The translations under genes and the position numbers were made by a program. This document shows, piece after piece, positions 1 to 56,130 of a stretch of DNA of 64,000 nt; within the stretch, counting starts at the first letter, position 1; the number at the start of each line of letters is the position of its first letter. Under the pieces are notes generated by a model. The model saw only the letters and a program-made list of their open reading frames with translations, did not search any database and was not told the DNA's origin. The DNA lies in the NCBI RefSeq assembly GCF_003584125.1, contig NZ_QXFL01000004.1, positions 430,241-494,240 of the forward strand, given 5' to 3'. This DNA comes from Aurantiacibacter zhengii (GTDB lineage: Bacteria > Pseudomonadota > Alphaproteobacteria > Sphingomonadales > Sphingomonadaceae).

Positions 1-586
1 CATCGGCGGCGTGGGTGGCGGCCCGGCCGTGGCCGTGCAGGATGTCAATCCGGCCACCACGGTGACCCAAGGCACGATGATCCCGGCAATCCTCGAAACT
101 GCCATCAACACCGACGTGCCGGGGTTCGTACGCGCCGTGGTTAGCCAGGACGTGCGCAGCTACGATGGCAGCCGCGTGCTGATCCCGCGCTCCAGCCGTC
201 TCGTCGGCCAGTACCAGTCCGGCCTGCAGGCGGGCCAGCGGCGCGCCTATGTGATCTGGCAACGCGTTATCCGCCCCGATGGTGTTACCGTGTCGCTGCA
301 AAGCCCGGCCACCAGCTTCGATGGCACGGCGGGCCTGCAGGGCGATGTGAACACCCATTTCTTCAGCAGGTTCGGCAGCGCCATGCTGCTGTCGGTCATC
401 GGCGGCCTCACCACCGTCGCCAGCGGTGGCGCGTCGGTTATCCTCGGCGGCGGGGAATCTGCCGCGAGCACGGCCTTGCAGCAGGACGGACAGCGTCCGC
501 CCACCATTCGTGTTCGCATGGGTGAACCGATCCGCGTCTACACCGCGCGCGATCTGGACTTCACCCGCGCGCCGCAGGTCAACTGA
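1..586 (+). CDS. virB10: VirB10/TrbI type IV secretion protein, C-terminal part (5' end outside window)
   Basis: The reading frame is open from base 2 and ends in TGA at 586, so 194 residues of the C-terminus are seen. VirB10 spans both membranes of a type IV secretion channel and its C-terminal beta-barrel forms the outer-membrane cap. The visible part has family features: an early 'GTMIPAILET' stretch, 'VSQDVRSYDGSRVLIPRSS', and a glycine/alanine-rich hydrophobic segment near residues 120-150 that fits the antenna helix. The C-terminus ends soon after a 'GEPIRVYTARDLDF' stretch, as in VirB10/TrbI proteins. virB11 follows after 7 bases, the usual order. Truncation is due only to the window edge. 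Whether the operon serves conjugation or effector export cannot be told here. Confidence 0.9.
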   Translation, partial: IGGVGGGPAVAVQDVNPATTVTQGTMIPAILETAINTDVPGFVRAVVSQDVRSYDGSRVLIPRSSRLVGQYQSGLQAGQRRAYVIWQRVIRPDGVTVSLQSPATSFDGTAGLQGDVNTHFFSRFGSAMLLSVIGGLTTVASGGASVILGGGESAASTALQQDGQRPPTIRVRMGEPIRVYTARDLDFTRAPQVN

Positions 587-45180: not shown

Positions 45181-45221
45181 GACTCTTGTTGCGGTCGGCG
45201 AGTTCTGTCAGCAATTGCGTG

Positions 45222-46304
45222 ATGCAACTTACAATTACCGATAGCGAAGGCAAACCTCTTGATGCCAAGATCGAGGTGGAGGGTGATGCGATTATAGTCC
45301 ATAGCCGTAGTGGAGCTGGGACCAATGCCCGCAATCCCGACTACCGTCCTGCGCTCGAGGCAATTCTTATGCGCCTTGCTGCTATCGGCGCAAAACCAGC
45401 ATTCTATCTTGATAGCCGTCCAGTTGCACATCTGCCGCTCGAACGACGCCGGATTGCGACGCCGGCAGAACTAACAGGCTCACCGGAGGAGAAGTTCCAG
45501 CACCTTGTGCGCGCTATGAATGCGGGGACAGATAGCCATGGCGCATGGCGCCGCATTCGCCTAATAGTGCCCGGACAGACCCAAACCGAGCTTGCCGACG
45601 CCATTGCATCTTTACCTTCTACTTCGCCCACGCGCTTGCCCGCCGCGCAATTGCGACAGGTCACTGCGAAGCATGTTGAGAAGGCGGTAGCAGACATCGC
45701 TTCGGGAAAGGTCGCGACCAATTTCTCTATGTCGCGAGATTATGACCTCATGGTGGCTGGCGGAATACGTCTCGCGCCAAAGCAAGTTTTCGGGCGCGCG
45801 CTCGAACTGGCTCTTGGGATTGAGGCGTTCCCCGAGCATTTCAGTGCTGGTCTCGGCACACCCTGCTTTCAGGCGCTCGAAGCTGCCGGCTACGCTATTG
45901 TCCCCAAACCGGAAGCATCAATTGCGCTCGCTAACCGAGAACGATCGACGGCATCTATTGATGAGGATCAACCCTCGTCCATGTTCCCTGACGAGGACCG
46001 GAAGTTTGTCGAAGGCAGCGCAAAGCGAGCAAACCATCTGCTCCGCGAACGCAACCGAGCCCTAGTTGCTGAGTTCAAGACTGCATTCCGCGCCAAGCAC
46101 GGTCACTTTCACTGCGAGAACTGCAAGAACGATTGGCGAGATCAATATGGAGAAGCTATCGCCGAAGCCTGTTTCGAGGCCCACCACGCGGTCACCCAGG
46201 TCGCCGATATGTTGGAAGATCACCAAACCACCATTGCAGATTTGCAGCTACTCTGCGCGAATTGTCACCGCGCGGAACATCGAAGAATGAGGTTGAAGAA
46301 ATGA
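45222..46304 (+). CDS. HNH endonuclease-domain protein
   Basis: 360-residue protein. The C-terminal HNH domain holds 'HCENC' (298-301), the His pair in 'CFEAHHAV' (321-322), and 'LLCANCHRAEH' (345-348), so both zinc CxxC pairs and the catalytic His are present. The N-terminal 280 residues are unlike known domains and include 'DAKIEVEGDAIIVHSRSG' and 'GSPEEKFQHLVRAMNAG', perhaps for target recognition. The stop overlaps the PD-(D/E)XK gene in ATGA. This suggests a two-nuclease unit, maybe restriction-like, but no methyltransferase is adjacent. Confidence 0.82.
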   Translation: MQLTITDSEGKPLDAKIEVEGDAIIVHSRSGAGTNARNPDYRPALEAILMRLAAIGAKPAFYLDSRPVAHLPLERRRIATPAELTGSPEEKFQHLVRAMNAGTDSHGAWRRIRLIVPGQTQTELADAIASLPSTSPTRLPAAQLRQVTAKHVEKAVADIASGKVATNFSMSRDYDLMVAGGIRLAPKQVFGRALELALGIEAFPEHFSAGLGTPCFQALEAAGYAIVPKPEASIALANRERSTASIDEDQPSSMFPDEDRKFVEGSAKRANHLLRERNRALVAEFKTAFRAKHGHFHCENCKNDWRDQYGEAIAEACFEAHHAVTQVADMLEDHQTTIADLQLLCANCHRAEHRRMRLKK

Positions 46305-47446
46305 GCGATCTATTCTCCGATCTTTACCGCTTTCGACAGCGCGAAAACAAAAACAATCTCGAAGACTGGCTCACCGAATGCCTCGCAGCAGTGTTACGGG
46401 AACTCAATCGAGACGAATGGCAGAAGTTTCTGATCGAAGTGACCGGTGCCGACCAATTTGCAATAGCCAAATTGCTTAGCGAGGAAATTCCGGAAGTTCG
46501 TACGCAAGTTCAAGCGGGAGGGGGCATCGGCATTCCTGATCTCGTGATTTTTCACCGCGATCAACCTTTCGTTCTCTTTGAGAACAAGGTCGCTCATTCG
46601 GTCAGTGTGCATGAGAATGACGCTGGCGAAGTTGTGAACCAATTACACCGATATGCCCGCTGGCTGGTAAAACAATCGCGGCCAGGCGCCGAGGTTCTTC
46701 ATCTCGTCTTCCTTACCCATTTGACGCGCCCACCGGCGGATTTTGGAGTAATGAAGGCGTCAAATCTTTGCCCGTATGAGGGGATCGCGCGCACCACCGA
46801 AAGTTGGGGACGGATTGCCAGGACTTTAAGTCGGATAACTCGGACTGAGAAGCCTGCAAGTCTTGCCGCAGGTCTTGCTAAAGCCTTTCAGACAATGCTG
46901 GAGAACGAAAACATGGCCAACGAATTTCCCGACACGAACTCATTCGCCGCTCTTCAAATCTTTCTGAAGCAAGGAGCTGCCCTTGAAAACCTCGTAAGCA
47001 GAATGTGGGACGAAGCAGCTGGTGTGGCAAATTCTGGAAAGATGAGCGCTCGAAGGGTTGAGGCAGAATTAGATTACGGCCGTTATTCAGCATCGCGTTA
47101 TGCTAATGCTATTGCATCACCTGCAACGAACAGCGCGTTCTTGATGACAGGTATTTGGTACCCTGAGGTCAAAGATGTCTGGCAAGCAGATGAGCTCGGC
47201 GGATATGAGCCGACCGACCCTCATGTCTTTTTGCTTTTCGCTGATGATAAAGATGACGTGTTCACTTCGATACACGGAGTGCCTGGGGAAGGTTGGCACA
47301 GACCAAATTCAGATTTCCTTGCCTTGCAGCCGCTGTACTCATTCAAGGGGTCGCCGGATTCTCGCGCCGCTTCAATTTTGGAATGGGTTGCTCGAGAAGC
47401 CAAACTACTGCGCCCGTTCCTTCTTGAAAACAATTTAAGTACTTGA
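46301..47446 (+). CDS. PD-(D/E)XK nuclease family protein
   Basis: 381 residues. The nuclease core is seen near the N-terminus: E25 in 'LEDWLTECLAAVL', 'GGIGIPDLVIF' (P79-D80), 'VLFENKVAH' (E94-x-K96), then 'VVNQLHRYARWL' (Q114), as in PD-(D/E)XK superfamily members. The C-terminal 250 residues match nothing I know. The start overlaps the HNH gene stop in ATGA. Its 3' end is 60 bases before the IS3 element. In islands this type of protein is often part of restriction or defence. Confidence 0.8.
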   Translation: MSDLFSDLYRFRQRENKNNLEDWLTECLAAVLRELNRDEWQKFLIEVTGADQFAIAKLLSEEIPEVRTQVQAGGGIGIPDLVIFHRDQPFVLFENKVAHSVSVHENDAGEVVNQLHRYARWLVKQSRPGAEVLHLVFLTHLTRPPADFGVMKASNLCPYEGIARTTESWGRIARTLSRITRTEKPASLAAGLAKAFQTMLENENMANEFPDTNSFAALQIFLKQGAALENLVSRMWDEAAGVANSGKMSARRVEAELDYGRYSASRYANAIASPATNSAFLMTGIWYPEVKDVWQADELGGYEPTDPHVFLLFADDKDDVFTSIHGVPGEGWHRPNSDFLALQPLYSFKGSPDSRAASILEWVAREAKLLRPFLLENNLST

Positions 47447-47587: not shown

Positions 47588-48733
47588 ATGAAGGCATCGA
47601 AGTTCACGGACGCGCAGAAGGCGTCCGTCGTGAAGCAGGGCGAAGAAGGCACTCCGGTCGCTGAGATCTGCCGCAAGGCGGGGATCAGCCAGGCGACCTA
47701 CTTCAACTGGAAGAAGAAATACGCGGGGCTGATGCCGCCGGAGATGCGGCGGCTGCGTGCGCTCGAGGATGAGAACGGGCGATTGAAGAAGATCGTGGCC
47801 GATCTGACGCTTGATCGCGATGCTGCAGGACGTTATCCGCCGAAAGCTCTGAGGCCGGATCGGAAGCGCGAGCTGGTCGACGGGATGCTGGCGGACTGGG
47901 GCGTGTCGATCCGGAGGGCCTGCCGAGCTCTGTCGTTCGACACTTCCAGTTATCACTACAAGTCCCGTCGCACCGATCCGGCCTTTCTGAAAAACCGTAT
48001 CAAGGAGATCTGCGAGACGCATGTCCGCTACGGCTATCGGCGGGTCTATTACATCCTGCGCCGGGACGGTTGGTGCGTGAACCTGAAGAAGGTCTGCAGG
48101 CTTTACAGGGAGTTGGGCTTGCAGCTGCGCAACAAGACGCCCAAGCGGCGGGTTAAGGCGAAGCTAAGAGAAGACCGCGCACCAGCAATCAGGCCGAACG
48201 ATGTCTGGGCGATGGACTTTTTGCACGACCAGCTGGCGACGGGTCGCAAGCTGCGCATCCTGACGGTGGTCGATACGTTCTCGCGGCTCTCACCGGTAAT
48301 CGATCCCCGGTTCAGCTACCGGGGCGAGAATGTGGTCGCTACGCTGGACGCGACTTGCCGGAAGATCGGCTACCCGAAGACGATACGAGTGGACAATGGC
48401 AGTGAATTTATCTCTCGGGACATGGATCTGTGGGCTTACCAGCGCGGCGTGATCCTCGACTTCTCCCGCCCTGGCAAGCGCACAGACAATGCGTTCATCG
48501 AAGCGTGCAACAGCAAGCTGCGAAGCGAGTGGCTGAACGCCCACTGGTTCCTGAACCTGCAAGACGCTTGCGAAAAGCTGGAGGCTTGGCGTAGACACTA
48601 CAACGAAGAGCGACCGCACAGCGCGATCGGGAATATCCCCCCGATCATGCTGGCAAACTCAGCCGGTGAAACCAGCCCACCGGACTTGGGAAAGGCGGAA
48701 AACTCCAGATCTGAGTGGTCCAAGGTTGGGTAG
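47588..48733 (+). CDS. IS3/IS407 transposase, OrfA and OrfB in one frame
   Basis: 381 residues. OrfA region: 'SKFTDAQKASVVKQGEEGTPVAEICRKAGISQATYFNWKKKYAG', an HTH plus leucine zipper. OrfB region: the DDE integrase core with 'PNDVWAMDFLHDQ' (D), 'TIRVDNGSEF' (D) and 'DNAFIEACNSKL' (E). In the relatives I know, OrfA ends '...LDREMLQDVIRRKL' and OrfB is reached by a -1 frameshift. Here the text at 47815-47830 lacks two bases, so OrfA runs straight into OrfB as '...LDRDAAGRYPPKAL'. The fused protein would be made without frameshifting. Confidence 0.9.
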   Translation: MKASKFTDAQKASVVKQGEEGTPVAEICRKAGISQATYFNWKKKYAGLMPPEMRRLRALEDENGRLKKIVADLTLDRDAAGRYPPKALRPDRKRELVDGMLADWGVSIRRACRALSFDTSSYHYKSRRTDPAFLKNRIKEICETHVRYGYRRVYYILRRDGWCVNLKKVCRLYRELGLQLRNKTPKRRVKAKLREDRAPAIRPNDVWAMDFLHDQLATGRKLRILTVVDTFSRLSPVIDPRFSYRGENVVATLDATCRKIGYPKTIRVDNGSEFISRDMDLWAYQRGVILDFSRPGKRTDNAFIEACNSKLRSEWLNAHWFLNLQDACEKLEAWRRHYNEERPHSAIGNIPPIMLANSAGETSPPDLGKAENSRSEWSKVG

Positions 48734-49954: not shown

Positions 49955-50134
49955 TCACGGCCTTATCACTTCGATACTGAGCTCTAGCAGCCTAATCGCC
50001 TGAGTGATCGCGTTTGACACTTTGCAGTTATCACCGTGCAGGGCAGCTTGTGCGTCCTGCTTCAGAATAGCTAGCTTTTCGGATGGTGGAATTGGTGTAG
50101 GTTCGATCTTCAGTACTTCATCGGTTTCGCTGTT
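49955..50134 (-). pseudogene. Start-less 59-codon frame after the serine recombinase
   Basis: On the minus strand an open frame runs from just after a TAG near the recombinase stop to TGA at 49955: '...ETDEVLKIEPTPIPPSEKLAILKQDAQAALHGDNCKVSNAITQAIRLLELSIEVIRP'-like. It has no ATG or GTG near its 5' end and overlaps the recombinase tail in another frame. It may be a frameshifted extension of that protein or the remnant of a second gene. Low confidence. Confidence 0.3.
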
Positions 50135-50696
50135 CTACTCGCTGTATAACGGATCGGCTGACGTCGAGCTCCTTCGCCACCGTTGCCAATGAGTGGCCTT
50201 CAGCTCGCAATCTCAATGCTTCTTTTTCCTGGTCATCGCTAAGCGCACGCGGCCGTCCCAACTTCTTGCCTTCTGCCTTTGCACGTTTGAGCCCGGCCTG
50301 GGTCCGCTCGACCAGCAAGTCGCGCTCAAACTCTGCCACGGCGTTGATCACCGACATGGTCATTTTGCCAGCGGCGCTCGTGAGGTCCACACCACCAAGC
50401 GCCAGGCAATGAACTCTCACTTTCTCCTCGGCCAGATGCTCGACTGTGGTTCGAACATCCATGGCGTTGCGCCCCAATCGATCCAGCTTGGTAACAATCA
50501 GCACATCGTCCCAGTCGAGCTTTTGCATCAATCGGTTGAAGCCGGGGCGCTGCATAGCAGGCACCGAGCCTGAAATTGTCTCTTCCACGGTGCGGCGAGG
50601 TTCGACCAGGAAACCAGCAGCTGCAATTTCCGCGATCTGGTTCTGGGTTGTCTGCTCGCTGGTACTGACGCGGCAGTATGCAAATATTCGCGACAT
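50118..50696 (-). CDS. Serine recombinase (resolvase/invertase type)
   Basis: 192 residues. N-terminal resolvase domain with the nucleophile in 'AYCRVSTSEQTTQNQ' (Ser11/13), then 'VLIVTKLDRLGRNAMD' and 'MTMSVINAVAEFERDLLVERT' typical of Pin/Tn3 resolvases. The C-terminal helix-turn-helix is 'GHSLATVAKELDVSRSVIQRVEQ'. Start at 50696. Candidate res repeats lie directly upstream. No transposase of Tn3 type is nearby, so it may be an orphan resolvase of the island. Confidence 0.93.
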   Translation of the reverse strand: MSRIFAYCRVSTSEQTTQNQIAEIAAAGFLVEPRRTVEETISGSVPAMQRPGFNRLMQKLDWDDVLIVTKLDRLGRNAMDVRTTVEHLAEEKVRVHCLALGGVDLTSAAGKMTMSVINAVAEFERDLLVERTQAGLKRAKAEGKKLGRPRALSDDQEKEALRLRAEGHSLATVAKELDVSRSVIQRVEQRNR

Positions 50697-50857: not shown

Positions 50858-50922
50858 ATGTCCGCTGTGCGCCCCAGTTTCTGGCGTTCAATCAGCTCGG
50901 CTGTTCGCGGGTAAGCGGACAT
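50858..50922. repeat. Inverted repeat with 49-base loop
   Basis: ATGTCCGC (50858-50865) pairs with GCGGACAT (50915-50922). It could be an IS remnant or a repeat family; its purpose is unclear. Confidence 0.3.
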
Positions 50923-51064
50923 AAGCGTCCGACCTACCCGGTTCAAAAAAGCTCTCAATGAAGCAGGGTCTGAGCGAGACATCACTGGCCTGATGTCGGC
51001 TCACTTAACTTAATGCCTTCCTTCGTCGGCTTATAGTATAGGGTCGAGAGTTGCAGCTTTTTGG

Positions 51065-51358
51065 TCAGAGGCAGGCTTTGAACGAGAACTTTTCGGTCGA
51101 ACCATCGACTCGGTTGATCCAAAAGCACCGTGTTCCAAAGTCCGCCGAACGAATGCTAAAGCTATCCACGCCAGCTCCAATTTTCTCTGATGCTTCAGGG
51201 TGGCGATCTAATAATAGCCTGAGGACGGTTTCATCTTCTTGCGATACTTTGTCTGCAAGATCGTACCTGTAGAGCATCTCTCTGAAAAAGTTCTGAGCAT
51301 CTCCTTTCCTGGCAAAGTGATGCTTTCCAATCGTGAGGGGCTTCGCTGGCATAATCAA
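51065..51358 (-). CDS. DUF3223 family protein
   Basis: 97 residues, matching DUF3223 with 'DAQNFFREMLYRYDLADKVSQEDETVLRLLLDRHPEASEKIGAGVDSFSIR' and 'TRCFWINRVDGSTEKFSFKACL'. This domain occurs in plants (DCL proteins) and in bacterial islands, often near restriction or defence genes. It overlaps the HamB-like gene by four bases, so it is probably the last gene of the same operon. Confidence 0.8.
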   Translation of the reverse strand: MIMPAKPLTIGKHHFARKGDAQNFFREMLYRYDLADKVSQEDETVLRLLLDRHPEASEKIGAGVDSFSIRSADFGTRCFWINRVDGSTEKFSFKACL

Positions 51359-52737
51359 CTCCGGCTGGGATCTTCCAATGGCACTTTCTCTAACACCTCT
51401 TTTGCGATGAGGTTTGGAATGTTCATCCCTTCGAACTCAGGCGAATACCTACGAATCCAACTGAGGCAGCCGTCTCTGTCGAGGTCATCCTGTGCAATCT
51501 TCTCATAGAGTTCGACCGCAGTCATTCGGGAGAGCCCTAGCTCCATTAGTGAAAGCAGCGTCTTGCTCGACACGCCAAATTCCAAGGCAACACCAATATC
51601 AAACTCTTCGTCGATCAGGTCAGAACGCTCAATTTCAACGAGATGATAGTTGAGGACATCGACGTAGGAAGACAGGTATTTGGGAGCCTTGAACCGCGCC
51701 GTTTGCTCAACAATTTCCAGTGTCTCACGGATGAGATTGGGTAGCCGGTATGAGCGCCCATTCCGCTTTTGATAGTCGATACGGTTTCGGATAATCGCGG
51801 CAAGAGAATACCCCTTTAGCCACTCGACAACGATCAACGAATGAAGGGGAATTAAACCAGGCGGCAGAAAGACGGGTACGACGTTCGCATTGACCCGTTC
51901 CATGATCGTTACGAAGCGATCATAAGCATCCACGCTTTCGGACGGCACGCCGCGCTCTACCAAAGGGGCGAGCTGGTAATCTCGATGGACTGCCTTTCGA
52001 GCCAAATCTGCAAGATCAAGAAGCTCTTGATCCTTTTTATCTTGCTCGTCGAGTATCGAATGGACTGAGACGTTTTCGGTATCCTTGAGGAGGGTCTTCA
52101 ACTCGCTTTCGATTTCTGTGACCAGTGCTCGCGTCGGTGCAAGGTAGACTGCGACGCGGTTTTCTGATGTGCGAACGTAATTGTTGAGCCATTGCAGTAT
52201 CAGGAATGTCTTTCCCGATGCGGTCTGTGCGGAGGCCGAAACCCAAGTGTCTTCTGTCGTGGCACCGGACCAAAGCTTTTGTTGAAAGTCGTTGACGGTC
52301 AACCAAGAACCATCCGTTTCGACAAGAACCGAATCCTCCATCTCGCGGCGAAGCGCTTCAAGGCGCATTGAAAAACCGAGCCGCTCATTCCTGTTTGCTT
52401 TCACAAGTTCTCGGTCTTCGGCTAACTTAGCTGCCCTATGGTTGGACAGCTTTTCTAGCAAGACGGCTCCGGCGTCCCTCACTTCGATTTCCGTCGACAG
52501 CGAGATAGCCGCGGTAGCGATGCGCAAAGCCGCCTCCTGGTGTTTCCGCGTTTGAGACTTGGCCAAAATGCTTGCAGCTAAGAGCAGGCGGTTCCAATCG
52601 CAGGTCCGCTCGCCATCTTCCCGGTCAACTTCAGTTATGTTGTCAATTTCTAATGCTACCGTGATTTGGGTAATCGCTTCGATCTCCTTCGAAAGCGCTT
52701 CATCGACTAGCCAGTCGAATAACTCCTCACTTTTCAT
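51355..52737 (-). CDS. HamB-like helicase, internally shortened (Hachiman partner)
   Basis: 460 residues, about half the length I expect of a HamB helicase. The N-terminal half is helical and ends with Walker A 'SAQTASGKT' (169-177) and a motif-Ia-like 'APTRALVTE' (200-208). Twenty residues later comes '...DLARKAVHRDYQLAPLVERGV' (245-264), which in relatives precedes motifs IV-VI, but these do not follow. No DEAH/DExH box and no Q/GRAGR-type motif VI is seen. The C-terminal part ('ALEFGVSSKTLLSLMELGLSR') is helicase-accessory-like. It overlaps the HamA-like gene by 11 bases. It may be a decayed gene or a non-helicase variant. Confidence 0.65.
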   Translation of the reverse strand: MKSEELFDWLVDEALSKEIEAITQITVALEIDNITEVDREDGERTCDWNRLLLAASILAKSQTRKHQEAALRIATAAISLSTEIEVRDAGAVLLEKLSNHRAAKLAEDRELVKANRNERLGFSMRLEALRREMEDSVLVETDGSWLTVNDFQQKLWSGATTEDTWVSASAQTASGKTFLILQWLNNYVRTSENRVAVYLAPTRALVTEIESELKTLLKDTENVSVHSILDEQDKKDQELLDLADLARKAVHRDYQLAPLVERGVPSESVDAYDRFVTIMERVNANVVPVFLPPGLIPLHSLIVVEWLKGYSLAAIIRNRIDYQKRNGRSYRLPNLIRETLEIVEQTARFKAPKYLSSYVDVLNYHLVEIERSDLIDEEFDIGVALEFGVSSKTLLSLMELGLSRMTAVELYEKIAQDDLDRDGCLSWIRRYSPEFEGMNIPNLIAKEVLEKVPLEDPSRS

Positions 52738-53680
52738 GCTTCAGGCCCAACGCTTCTAGGAAACTCGCACGAAATCCTTCAGCGGACGGCATCGGGACAC
52801 AAAGGAGCTGTATGTCGAAATGCTGCATCTTCTCCTCAAGAAGCCGCTTGGAAACATTGCCAAGCCGTGTCGCCATCTCAGCTTTTGCCGCTTTAGCAAT
52901 GTCTTCAGCCACTCCCTTTTCGTCTTCTCCGGGGTAGAAATCAGCATCGAATCCGACGAGCGCCACACCGCAGTACTCAACACGGTTTGATTGAGTCGAA
53001 GTCCTATCAAAGTATTTCTTGAATGCTGCCGTCAATTCGGGATCATTCAGATCAACTTTGTCGCTCAGGAGGCATAAATCGCGCTCCCTGGATGAGCTCT
53101 CATGGTCTTCCTCAATCAAGAATGGAGCAAGTGAATTGAGGCAGTCGCGAATAGCAGCCGCCGGGTCACCATATACTTTCGATTCTCCCCAAAAGAGCTT
53201 CAACAATCCTTCGTCCGAGACACTTGCATAAACTCCATCAGCTCCATGATAATGCATACGAGAATCTGTCTTCAAATCCATTTTGCAAAGGACTTGCGGC
53301 AATCCTAAGAAGCGTTCTGCGAGGATGTAGAGGAGCATTTCTCCGCCTTCTCCGGTTTTGGAGAGATCAGTGAAAGTCGAGACAGCTTCGTGGTGAAGAG
53401 CGGTTGTGGCGCTTGAAGATTTGAACTTCGCGTCACGCTCACGTGCAGCTTCCATCCGCGATTTTGGTATCGCGTAATCCGCAACCGTGTTGCGAAGGAA
53501 TTCTGCTAGTCGCTTGGGGTTGACCCGCCCATTTCCATCGATAGTCAGGCAATGACAATGAATGCGCACACTACAGCTATCAACAGTCAAATCCTTTTCG
53601 ATCAGGCTCAGATGTACGTCCAATTCTTCGGGATCGCCCGCGATAATCACTTGCAGGTCATCTGGTGAGATTGTCGACAA
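52727..53680 (-). CDS. HamA-like DUF1837 nuclease (Hachiman)
   Basis: 317 residues of DUF1837 type. The conserved block is 'GEGGEMLLYILAERFLGLPQVLCKMDLKTDSRMHYHGADGVY' followed by 'LKLFWGESKVY': E114 or nearby, D148 in 'HGADGV', and E166-x-K168 in 'GESK' give a PD-(D/E)XK-type active site. In Hachiman, HamA and HamB together protect from phage, with HamA as a DNA-degrading effector and HamB as its sensor. The gene order HamA then HamB on the same strand fits that system. Annotation is from remembered family features. Confidence 0.75.
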   Translation of the reverse strand: MSTISPDDLQVIIAGDPEELDVHLSLIEKDLTVDSCSVRIHCHCLTIDGNGRVNPKRLAEFLRNTVADYAIPKSRMEAARERDAKFKSSSATTALHHEAVSTFTDLSKTGEGGEMLLYILAERFLGLPQVLCKMDLKTDSRMHYHGADGVYASVSDEGLLKLFWGESKVYGDPAAAIRDCLNSLAPFLIEEDHESSSRERDLCLLSDKVDLNDPELTAAFKKYFDRTSTQSNRVEYCGVALVGFDADFYPGEDEKGVAEDIAKAAKAEMATRLGNVSKRLLEEKMQHFDIQLLCVPMPSAEGFRASFLEALGLKHEK

Positions 53681-53779
53681 TACAGGTCTCCGCGACTCTA
53701 AGGGATAGTTACTTGTAAGGCGACCTTAGGTTGGCCTATTAGGTTGTTCTGAGGTGCACGCGAAAAAAGGAGCGCGCTA

Positions 53780-54868
53780 TCACGGATCGAACTTTCGTCT
53801 GATGTAGGAAAATGGGCCAAGGACAATTATTACCCCCCATCCAATCAAGCGAGCAACCGCTCGCAGCCCAATCCAAGCTGCCTTCCATTGAGTTTGGGTG
53901 TGCTTGTTATCCGAGGCGAAGTTTCCTTCGGGTTGAGTGAGAAATCGTTCCCACAGCCCACCATCCCTTAATTGTTCTTGAAGTCGTGTAGAACGCAAGG
54001 CCTCTGAGTGATCAAACGCAGGGTCCAAATGATTGACCGTATACTTGTCTAGATAACCAATACGTGCTCCAGGTCCCGTCCCAGGAATCATAAATTGGGC
54101 GAACAGCACTGGCATGTCTCTGCCCCCCATATGATTGAGGACGGCTCCGATACGATCATTCTCTGCCAGAGAGGCCCAATCGAAATCTGGTCTCACTATA
54201 CTGCCAACGGTAATCACTCGTCCAAACTTAAGGTCCTCGAACTCTGGGTCTTTCAAAACCTGTGTGAAGAGATGCGTGCCAAAACTATGTGCGATTATAT
54301 CTGGCCTTTCGACAATGCCTCTGGCTCTTGCATAGTCAATCGCCTTCCGCATTCTCCGCCCGAATGATTTGATCTGACGTTTTTGTAACGGGCGCGAAAG
54401 CACGTCGAGCGTTGCCCAGCCGTACTTGTAGATCAATATCGGAGCCGCATACCGAAGCTTATTGGCTATTAGCCAACTGAGGTCTTCCTGCCATGTTCCT
54501 CGTGTGTTGAACCCATGAACTACAATCATCCATGGGATGTCTCGGCTTGGCTTCCCAACGATGCGGTATCGGGTAGAAACGATGGGCTCCTCGTCCTCAA
54601 GAGCGAACTCAAAGTTGCAATTCGCGCATTCACCCGCTGCCAACATGCCGTCGTCGAGGGTCTCGCCGCACTGGTGGTTCGGACAGAGAAAATGATCGAT
54701 CCGCCTCATCAAACCATCGACAACTTGGCTTTCAAGAAAATCGACCAGAGGCTGGTTAGGCCACGGCTCACCTCTCACTTCCGCAAACTGCTGGGCCGAG
54801 AATTCGAGTTGGGTGCCGTCTCGTTGGCGACCCTTTATCTCATAAAGCCAGTCTTCGGCTTTAGTCAT
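53780..54868 (-). CDS. Alpha/beta hydrolase with zinc ribbon and C-terminal membrane anchor
   Basis: 362 residues. Cys62, 67, 81 and 84 ('CPNHQC' and 'CANC') form a probable zinc ribbon. The hydrolase part follows: 'IVVHGFNTRGTW' (115-126) with the oxyanion HGF, and a nucleophile elbow 'IIAHSFGTHL' (Ser195). Candidate acid and base are in 'RPDFDW' and 'NHLDPAFDHSE' (His280 or His287). A membrane segment 'AVARLIGWGVIIVLGPF' (337-353) ends the protein. It overlaps the upstream gene by 8 bases and lies 99 bases before HamA. Lipase-like effectors with membrane anchors are known in abortive infection; this one is not a system I recognise. Confidence 0.7.
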   Translation of the reverse strand: MTKAEDWLYEIKGRQRDGTQLEFSAQQFAEVRGEPWPNQPLVDFLESQVVDGLMRRIDHFLCPNHQCGETLDDGMLAAGECANCNFEFALEDEEPIVSTRYRIVGKPSRDIPWMIVVHGFNTRGTWQEDLSWLIANKLRYAAPILIYKYGWATLDVLSRPLQKRQIKSFGRRMRKAIDYARARGIVERPDIIAHSFGTHLFTQVLKDPEFEDLKFGRVITVGSIVRPDFDWASLAENDRIGAVLNHMGGRDMPVLFAQFMIPGTGPGARIGYLDKYTVNHLDPAFDHSEALRSTRLQEQLRDGGLWERFLTQPEGNFASDNKHTQTQWKAAWIGLRAVARLIGWGVIIVLGPFSYIRRKFDP

Positions 54869-55841
54869 TTTCTGGAGCTGTGTTTAATCGGATGAAACGA
54901 TCAATGACGAAGTGCACAAATTCCCGTTTGCATTGTGCCCATATGCGGATTCGTCCATCTTCCCCGGCAACTTCTACTGAAATCGGTTGGGCCTGGTCAT
55001 CGTTTTGTCGCACTGCGAACCTGCCCTGAGCTCGCGTGAACGCTTCATCGTTCACAGCTCGACGGGCTTGTCGAACAGCCTCAACTTGGTTGATCCCACC
55101 TTCAGCACTGGTTGACTTGAGCTCAACATATCCATCGTCGACTTCCATCCGAGTTTGCCTCGTTCCATCTTGGCGGCTTGCGGTCTTGACCGCTTCGGAA
55201 AGAGAAATAATCGGCCTAGTTGCATCGCAAAGTCCAATCTCTCGAAGCGCCTGCCAGACCACTGCTTTGGCCTCAACATGATCGATATCCTTGTTTCTAT
55301 GGATTAGAACTACGCAGTGATCTTCATCGAAGCGCCAGAGGAAGCGGACAACGCTCCTTTCGCGCATGAGCCGGTAGGCATCGAACCGAAAGATGTCACC
55401 ATCGATCTCTCGTCGATAATCGCGAGCTCTCGCGCGAGGCCATGATTGCTTCCCGATGTGCCAGATAAGGGACACGCCTTGCTCATCGAGATCTATGCCG
55501 GACAGCGAATAGTTATCTGGAAACTCAAATCTTTTCGGCGCTTCTAACAACTCAGCAAACGGGGTCGCTCTTATGGTCGCGGGAACTGTTTCAATCGGTA
55601 TAGTGGGGCTGGCAAAGACATAGAGATGCTGATTTCCCCAACCTTCAACCTCGGCCAGCCAGTCTTCAATCATCTCCTCAGTAAGGGTCCCGTTCTCGAC
55701 CGCCTCCATGAGGTTGTTTGCAAAGTCTCGTTTCGTGGTCCCAATTTTGATTTGATGTTGCCGGAGTAGTTCTTTGATGAAATCGTTCCCTTGTGCGAGA
55801 ACGACGGTAAGAATAACGTTCTTTAGTTCATCGATAGTCAT
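54861..55841 (-). CDS. Unrecognised partner of the membrane hydrolase (326 aa)
   Basis: 326 residues. The first 70 are helical ('FIKELLRQHQIKIGTTKRDFANNLMEAVENGTLTEEMIEDWLAEVEGWG') and look like a small nucleic-acid- or protein-binding helical unit. The rest is beta-rich, with 'RFEFPDNYSLSGIDLDEQGVSLIWHIGKQSW' and 'DEDHCVVLIHRNKDIDHVEAK'. No catalytic motif or membrane segment is seen. Its stop overlaps the hydrolase start by 8 bases, so the two are surely co-translated. I do not recognise a family. The pair could be a sensor-effector defence unit, by context. Confidence 0.55.
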   Translation of the reverse strand: MTIDELKNVILTVVLAQGNDFIKELLRQHQIKIGTTKRDFANNLMEAVENGTLTEEMIEDWLAEVEGWGNQHLYVFASPTIPIETVPATIRATPFAELLEAPKRFEFPDNYSLSGIDLDEQGVSLIWHIGKQSWPRARARDYRREIDGDIFRFDAYRLMRERSVVRFLWRFDEDHCVVLIHRNKDIDHVEAKAVVWQALREIGLCDATRPIISLSEAVKTASRQDGTRQTRMEVDDGYVELKSTSAEGGINQVEAVRQARRAVNDEAFTRAQGRFAVRQNDDQAQPISVEVAGEDGRIRIWAQCKREFVHFVIDRFIRLNTAPEND

Positions 55842-55872
55842 GTTTTAGCCCGGTCTTATTCATGAGTAGGCC

Positions 55873-56130
55873 TCAGTCATAGCAAGTACGGAAACCTTCC
55901 AAAAGGCCTAGGAATGGCAAGAGAATCCAATCGGTGCATAGGTTGAAGTATGTAGTTGAACCATCTCCATGCGGGCCGTCAGCCAACGGTCCAGTTTCTG
56001 CCGCAACGTGAATGAATTGCGATCGGCAGCTTTCGACTTCGTAGTTTGAAGCGTGGAATGTCGGACTTGGGGTGCGAAGCTGCCGCTCGCCGATGCGCCA
56101 GAACTCGGCAGCTTTGCGCCCTAATATCGG
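55873..56130 (-). pseudogene. Start-less 85-codon remnant
   Basis: A minus-strand frame runs from after a TGA at 56131-56133 to TGA at 55873-55875: '...GRKAAEFWRIGERQLRTPSPTFHASNYEVES... HVAAETGPLADGPHGDGSTTYFNLCTDWILLPFLGLLEGFRTCYD'-like. The composition looks coding, with no ATG/GTG start. It is probably the 3' piece of a gene cut off at this island edge. It lies in the 546-base gap 55842-56387, where I see no intact gene. Confidence 0.35.

What the first reader, a model, noticed from the sequence alone, without database searches (positions are those of the whole stretch)
53780..55841. Undescribed two-gene unit: zinc-ribbon membrane hydrolase and its overlapping partner
Two genes on the minus strand overlap by 8 bases. 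One encodes an alpha/beta hydrolase with a CxxxxC/CxxC ribbon, a Ser195 elbow (AHSFG) and a C-terminal membrane helix. The other is a 326-residue protein with no family I recognise. They lie directly upstream of a Hachiman-like pair in an integrated island. A lipase-like, membrane-anchored effector coupled to an unknown sensor is the layout of an abortive-infection system, but this pair matches none I know. The function is inference from context.
Basis: partly seen in the sequence, partly recalled or inferred. Interest (0 to 1): 0.75.

Follow-up and report, generated by a model that had tools for sequence, protein, structure and literature searches.

The report
DNA-sensor and membrane-lipase suicide pair
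Two overlapping genes that travel together between scattered bacteria encode a protein predicted to grip DNA, with a predicted shape like that of a DNA-recombination and a chromosome-segregation protein, and a predicted membrane-bound lipase; together they likely act as a suicide switch that stops phages, and they match no entry of the defence-gene catalogue searched.

Summary
In detail: two minus-strand genes (53780-54868, 54861-55841) overlap by 8 bases, 99 bp upstream of a Hachiman operon. They form a conserved unit: in 22 of 25 related loci read, an intact first gene (N) lies directly upstream of the second (H), and the two diverge in step (r 0.975). Neither matches Pfam, NCBIfam or PADLOC above cut-off. 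The unit is rare (full-length H in 1 of 398 phylum and 3 of 396 order genomes), of foreign base composition, and shared with Erythrobacter sp. YT30 as one 5.1-kb block with Hachiman in different surroundings. At least four of 18 neighbourhoods hold near-full-length known defence genes; eight Pseudomonas loci share one neighbourhood, so it is not always island-borne. Predicted structures: H is a lipase-like alpha/beta hydrolase with an invariant Ser-Asp-His set, an invariant four-cysteine site and a C-terminal hydrophobic helix; N resembles RdgC and kinetochore CENP-L/N, the fold also reported for lambda RexA. I propose a RexAB-like abortive-infection system with a lipase in place of the RexB membrane protein. 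Sequence tests place N in none of RdgC, RexA or CENP-N. Defence, DNA binding and lipase activity are untested.

The parts
54861..55841 (-). Gene N: 326-aa predicted DNA-binding sensor, RdgC/CENP-N-like predicted fold
55647..55841 (-). N residues 1-65: helical N-terminal domain, the most conserved part (invariant Q17 G18 N19 I22 K23 L25 R27 K37 F40 W61 L62)
   Evidence: lies where CENP-N has its pyrin-type domain in the structural alignment (model 2..320 against CENP-N 1..207)
55236..55631 (-). N residues 71-202: antiparallel beta-sheet domain, TBP / CENP-L/N homology-domain-like
   Evidence: strands 71-181 then helix 188-202
54879..55199 (-). N residues 215-321: second alpha/beta domain, in the place of the dimerisation (base) domain of RdgC
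   Evidence: RdgC alignment spans model 66..324
53780..54868 (-). Gene H: 362-aa predicted membrane-attached alpha/beta hydrolase (lipase-like effector)
54861..54868 (-). 8-base overlap of N and H
   Evidence: overlap present in 19 of 20 pairs examined (16 of 4 nt, 2 of 8 nt, 1 of 1 nt; one 14-nt gap)
54617..54685 (-). H four-cysteine site C62-x4-C67 / C81-xx-C84 (zinc-ribbon-like)
   Evidence: invariant in 43 rows
54284..54286 (-). H predicted nucleophile Ser195 (AHSFG)
   Evidence: invariant, follows strand 190-194
54116..54118 (-). H predicted catalytic Asp251
   Evidence: invariant, follows strand 242-248
54008..54010 (-). H predicted catalytic His287
   Evidence: invariant, follows strand 277-282
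53789..53872 (-). H C-terminal hydrophobic helix (residues 333-360), predicted membrane anchor
52727..53680 (-). Neighbour: HamA (Hachiman)
   Evidence: PF08878 4.2e-64, PADLOC HamA 6.5e-144
51355..52737 (-). Neighbour: HamB, internally shortened (460 aa)
51065..51358 (-). Neighbour: HamC (DUF3223)
50861..55993 (.). Block shared with Erythrobacter sp. YT30 (N, H, HamABC), 88-94% DNA identity in three pieces, the flanks differing

Best explanation
The two genes are a conserved, overlapping two-gene unit whose first product (N) is predicted to bind DNA and likely switches on the second (H), a predicted membrane-attached lipase, so that an infected cell would damage its own membrane and the infection would be aborted. 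Proposed steps: (1) N, made first and kept level with H by the overlapping frames, would sit as a dimeric clamp on DNA, as RdgC and RexA are thought to do; (2) phage replication or recombination intermediates would change N's shape; (3) N would touch H, most plausibly through H's N-terminal helical and four-cysteine region; (4) the H active site (Ser195, Asp251, His287) would cleave acyl esters, probably phospholipids, at the inner membrane to which its C-terminal helix would hold it; (5) the cell would stop growing before phage is released. Shown here: the unit, its conservation, its mobility, and at some sites its defence neighbourhood. Predicted: both folds, the catalytic residues, the membrane helix. 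Inferred and untested: DNA binding, activation, lipase activity, phage defence.
Confidence: 0.45

Rival explanations
1. Toxin-antitoxin: H is a constitutively toxic lipase and N its antitoxin and DNA-binding autorepressor; phage takeover or loss of the element releases H.
For: Overlapping two-gene order with the putative regulator first; N predicted DNA-binding fold; patchy, mobile distribution.
Against: In Sphingobium ummariense (L003) only the last 33 residues of N stand before a fully open H, behind a DDE transposase gene near the contig start; a free toxin should not tolerate that unless silent. N (326 aa) is large for an antitoxin (recalled yardstick).
Confidence: 0.2
2. Anti-plasmid or DNA-uptake defence: N recognises foreign or replicating plasmid DNA rather than phage and triggers H.
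For: Same anatomy; occurs on large Rhizobium and Aminobacter plasmids, which might use it against competitors; no phage record carries it.
Against: The neighbours that could be named are anti-phage systems (Hachiman, Avs4, PD-Lambda-4, Bil).
Confidence: 0.13
3. A resident membrane-lipid or DNA-repair function without a role in defence, moved about by chance.
For: Eight Pseudomonas loci keep the pair in one neighbourhood; PADLOC-DB has no model for it; most neighbourhoods gave no mapped defence gene.
Against: Full-length H in 1 of 398 phylum genomes and 3 of 396 order genomes, and in 3 of 79 genomes of the genus of L004; relatives do not follow species kinship; four sites beside known defence genes.
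Confidence: 0.15
4. N and H are accessory subunits of Hachiman, extending HamABC.
For: One block with HamABC in two Erythrobacter-type genomes, 99 bp apart.
Against: Hachiman was matched at 1 of the 18 neighbourhoods (not every flanking protein was scanned or shown); here HamB has lost much of its helicase while N and H are open.
Confidence: 0.04

Closest known systems
RexAB of phage lambda and the RexAB-type system of a Pseudomonas putida prophage
   Same: Two-gene unit, soluble partner first, membrane effector second; RexA has an RdgC-like fold and binds DNA (PMC11077077); overproduced RexA of P. putida causes RexB-dependent membrane damage (PMC12894663).
   Different: The effector here is a predicted lipase with one C-terminal helix, not a four-helix membrane protein; N carries an N-terminal helical domain of its own; no sequence relation to lambda-type RexA found (the P. 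putida RexA was not compared); not found in any phage record.
RdgC, recombination-associated DNA-ring protein
   Different: PF04381 does not match (0 of 58 class genomes, the own one included); hhalign 1%; N is paired with a lipase.
Inner-kinetochore CENP-N and CENP-L (yeast Chl4, Iml3)
   Same: N's order of parts, helical domain then antiparallel sheet domain then second alpha/beta domain, matches that described for CENP-N (PMC5777823 passages); a CENP-N chain aligns from N residue 2 to 320.
Lipase effectors of other defence systems (CBASS CapV; Lamassu lipase/hydrolase variants; recalled)
   Same: Membrane-directed lipid hydrolase as the killing part (recalled; CapV papers seen only in the listing).
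   Different: H is an alpha/beta hydrolase of its own family with a four-cysteine site; CapV is patatin-type and driven by cyclic nucleotides (recalled).
DUF900 / bacterial lipase A family alpha/beta hydrolases
   Same: Fold and catalytic order.
   Different: DUF900 scores 14.2 bits against a cut-off of 20.5; N-terminal domain, Cys4 site and C-terminal helix are added.

Membership tests
RexAB | RexA profile PF15969 matches the first protein | tested here: not met
   Not among the matches of 46 N proteins nor in 7 genomes at E <= 10; lambda RexA itself 1e-97 as positive control; hhalign 0.1%
RexAB | RexB-type four-helix membrane protein (PF15968) as effector | tested here: not met
   H is an alpha/beta hydrolase by predicted fold; lambda RexB gives PF15968 8.5e-92, H gives only DUF900 below cut-off
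RexAB | first protein has the RexA/RdgC fold | tested here: inconclusive
RexAB | DNA binding and infection-triggered membrane damage | not testable with these tools
   needs bench work
RdgC | PF04381 profile match | tested here: not met
   Not among the matches of 46 N proteins nor in the own genome
RdgC | RdgC-like predicted fold | tested here: met
CENP-N | PF05238 profile match | tested here: not met
   0 of 7 genomes that carry the pair, E <= 10
CENP-N | pyrin-type domain, CENP-L/N homology domain and dimerisation domain in that order | tested here: inconclusive
alpha/beta hydrolase fold lipases | fold plus nucleophile-acid-histidine in canonical order | tested here: met
DUF900 (PF05990) | score above the curated cut-off | tested here: not met
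   14.2 against 20.5 bits
any system in PADLOC-DB 2.0.0 | a model matches N or H | tested here: not met
   0 families for both at E <= 1
Hachiman | N-H occurs regularly with HamA/HamB | tested here: not met
   1 of 18 neighbourhoods among the flanking proteins scanned and shown

The most novel reading that the evidence does not exclude
N is a true bacterial homologue of the kinetochore pair CENP-N/CENP-L: the three-part DNA-gripping protein of the eukaryotic inner kinetochore descends from, or shares its ancestor with, a bacterial phage sensor that arms a membrane lipase.
Probability: 0.2. Interest if true: 0.88.

Novelty: new variant of a known kind. Interest (0 to 1): 0.62.

Why it matters
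If true, it is a RexAB-style system in which the membrane protein RexB is replaced by an enzyme with a testable active site, so that the open question of what RexA-fold proteins sense could be read out with a simple lipase assay. The fold link also gives a bacterial protein with the full order of parts of CENP-N, a kinetochore protein of unsettled origin (recalled). The pair is absent from the defence catalogue searched and present in Alpha- and Gammaproteobacteria.

Tried and rejected
Sequence routes to N's family: Pfam on one protein and on 46 rows (only scattered weak matches, best AIP3 at 0.0015 in one member), NCBIfam, PADLOC, PHROGs, PDB by sequence and by profile (chance-level matches, E 0.69 or more), RexA and RdgC profiles, PF05238 and PF15969 in 7 genomes: no relation found. 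The phrog_6357 match of N (1.6e-4) was rejected as chance: that family rings in 53 of 200 genomes, mostly through another part of the profile. No copy in viral contigs or phage records. RexA (8twq) did not appear in the rows listed by the fold searches.

Defence neighbours: a tally of 117 flanking proteins (four to each side where present, those over 1400 aa left out) from 17 loci gave 115 PADLOC families at E <= 1e-10, of which 25 were shown; 111 control proteins from 13 regions elsewhere in 11 of the same genomes and on two of the plasmids gave 26, of which 25 were shown. No control could be had for L003 (the region did not exist), and none was taken for L012, L019 and L022. The family counts are inflated because one helicase matches many models, and the control itself held a DpdF-type match of 1.1e-192; I therefore dropped the DpdF/PsyrT match beside L008 (3.3e-101) as unspecific and counted only near-full-length matches. 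L083 and L084 were added later with three flanking proteins each, and 2002 of 2712 residues of the large L018 neighbour; the control was not extended to match. Neighbourhoods: I count 18 by treating eight Pseudomonas loci as one; merging every locus that shares even one flanking protein of 50% identity or more (this brings in L011 and L013) gives 16.

Rows left out of the 25 loci: L085 (same record as L017), L077-L079 and L081-L082 (the same places as L084, L004, L085, L002, L083), L001/L027/L032 (window), and partial, distant hydrolase matches of at most 78 bits (L025, L026, L028-L031, L080 and three more). In the genus of L004, 7 of 79 genomes match at E <= 0.001 but only 3 are full-length.

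Toxin-antitoxin and Hachiman-subunit readings were considered and ranked lower (see rivals).

Full report
WHAT IS THERE. On the minus strand, gene N (326 aa, 54861-55841) is followed by gene H (362 aa, 53780-54868), overlapping by 8 bases. HamA, HamB and HamC of a Hachiman system follow after 99 bp.

IT IS A UNIT. Searches found 196 relatives of H and 132 of N (503 with a profile). A genome-contig scan gave 21 loci with H, plasmid records two more with most of the query covered, and genome searches two more that were read in full (L083, L084). An intact N lies directly upstream of H in 22 of these 25. In L019 an rve-type transposase gene lies inside N; in L003 only the last 33 residues of N stand before H, behind a DDE transposase gene near the contig start; L020 is a decayed fragment of H without N. 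Among 20 pairs examined the frames overlap in 19; in one of these (L021) H is frame-shifted. Pairwise distances of N and H across 21 pairs, the window included, correlate at 0.975; shared descent of the whole unit suffices to explain this. On plasmids N occurs in two records, the same two that hold full-length H.

IT MOVES. Full-length H occurs in 1 of 398 genomes drawn from the phylum (the other four matches are partial and below 56 bits), N in 1 of 398, H in 3 of 396 from the order and in 3 of 79 from the genus of L004. Window 50861-55993 aligns to Erythrobacter sp. YT30 (8876-15233 of L002) at 88-94% in three pieces, while nothing else in the 21-kb locus matches the window at E <= 1e-10. 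In YT30 a tyrosine integrase gene stands 240 bp upstream of N. Block GC is 50.7% against 61.1% for the window. L083, from the window's own order, has a pair 83%/75% (N/H) identical to that of Rhizobium dioscoreae but 43%/39% to the window's, whose H is 54% identical to that of a Rhizobium leguminosarum plasmid.

ITS COMPANY. Treating eight Pseudomonas loci with a shared neighbourhood as one, I count 18 neighbourhoods (16 by the strictest merging). Four carry near-full-length defence genes: Hachiman (L002 and the window), PD-Lambda-4_A at 1.3e-288 (L023) and BilD at 3.7e-164 with a GajB-like helicase (L024), and Avs4 at 3.7e-150 with the candidate PDC-S06 at 2.5e-66 (L084). More may hide in the 90 families of the tally that were not shown. 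The control tally and its limits are given under Tried and rejected. Against the island view, the Pseudomonas loci L004, L005, L006, L009, L010, L015, L017 and, in part, L014 share flanking genes (1 to 9 proteins of 50% identity or more between any two).

HOW IT LIKELY WORKS. lambda RexA is thought to sense infection and to open RexB; in P. putida, RexA overproduction causes RexB-dependent membrane damage (PMC12894663 abstract and passages). By analogy N would sense phage DNA structures and activate H at the membrane. L003, with an open H and almost no N beside it, speaks against H being a free toxin, although H may simply be silent there.

WHAT IT IS NOT SHOWN TO BE. Sequence profiles fail for RdgC, RexA and CENP-N, so N is filed in none of them. 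No paper describing this pair was seen in the listings, in an open-licence library only; newer or subscription papers may hold it.

VERDICT. A real, mobile two-gene unit that the catalogues searched do not hold; abortive infection by a DNA-sensing partner and a lipase is the best explanation (0.45). Interest 0.62.

Noticed in passing
window 51355-52737 (-): HamB of the Hachiman operon is 460 aa against 868 aa in Erythrobacter sp. YT30: residues about 230-411 and 452-659 of the YT30 protein are absent while the frame stays open, so Hachiman may be inactive here although N-H is open.
   Followed up: partly
window 50118-50696 (-): Serine recombinase/invertase-type gene just beyond the shared block, a candidate for the block's mobility.
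   Followed up: no
L025:2528-7702: On an Enterobacter hormaechei plasmid a distant H-like hydrolase (384 aa) ends a different three-gene row: a 1191-aa unknown protein and a 146-aa receiver-like protein; possibly another system that uses this hydrolase type.
   Followed up: partly
L021:4410-6857: NACHT-type protein (816 aa; just below the Pfam cut-off) near an N-H pair whose H is frame-shifted.
   Followed up: no
L024:2456-8744: BilD with a GajB-like UvrD helicase and a Mov34/MPN gene (BilC in the tally is probably this one) directly upstream of N-H on an Aminobacter plasmid.
   Followed up: partly
window 45186-47446 (+): HNH endonuclease-domain gene followed by a gene with weak HSDR_N similarity, next to a transposase-like gene at 47588-48733, perhaps another defence remnant.
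   Followed up: no
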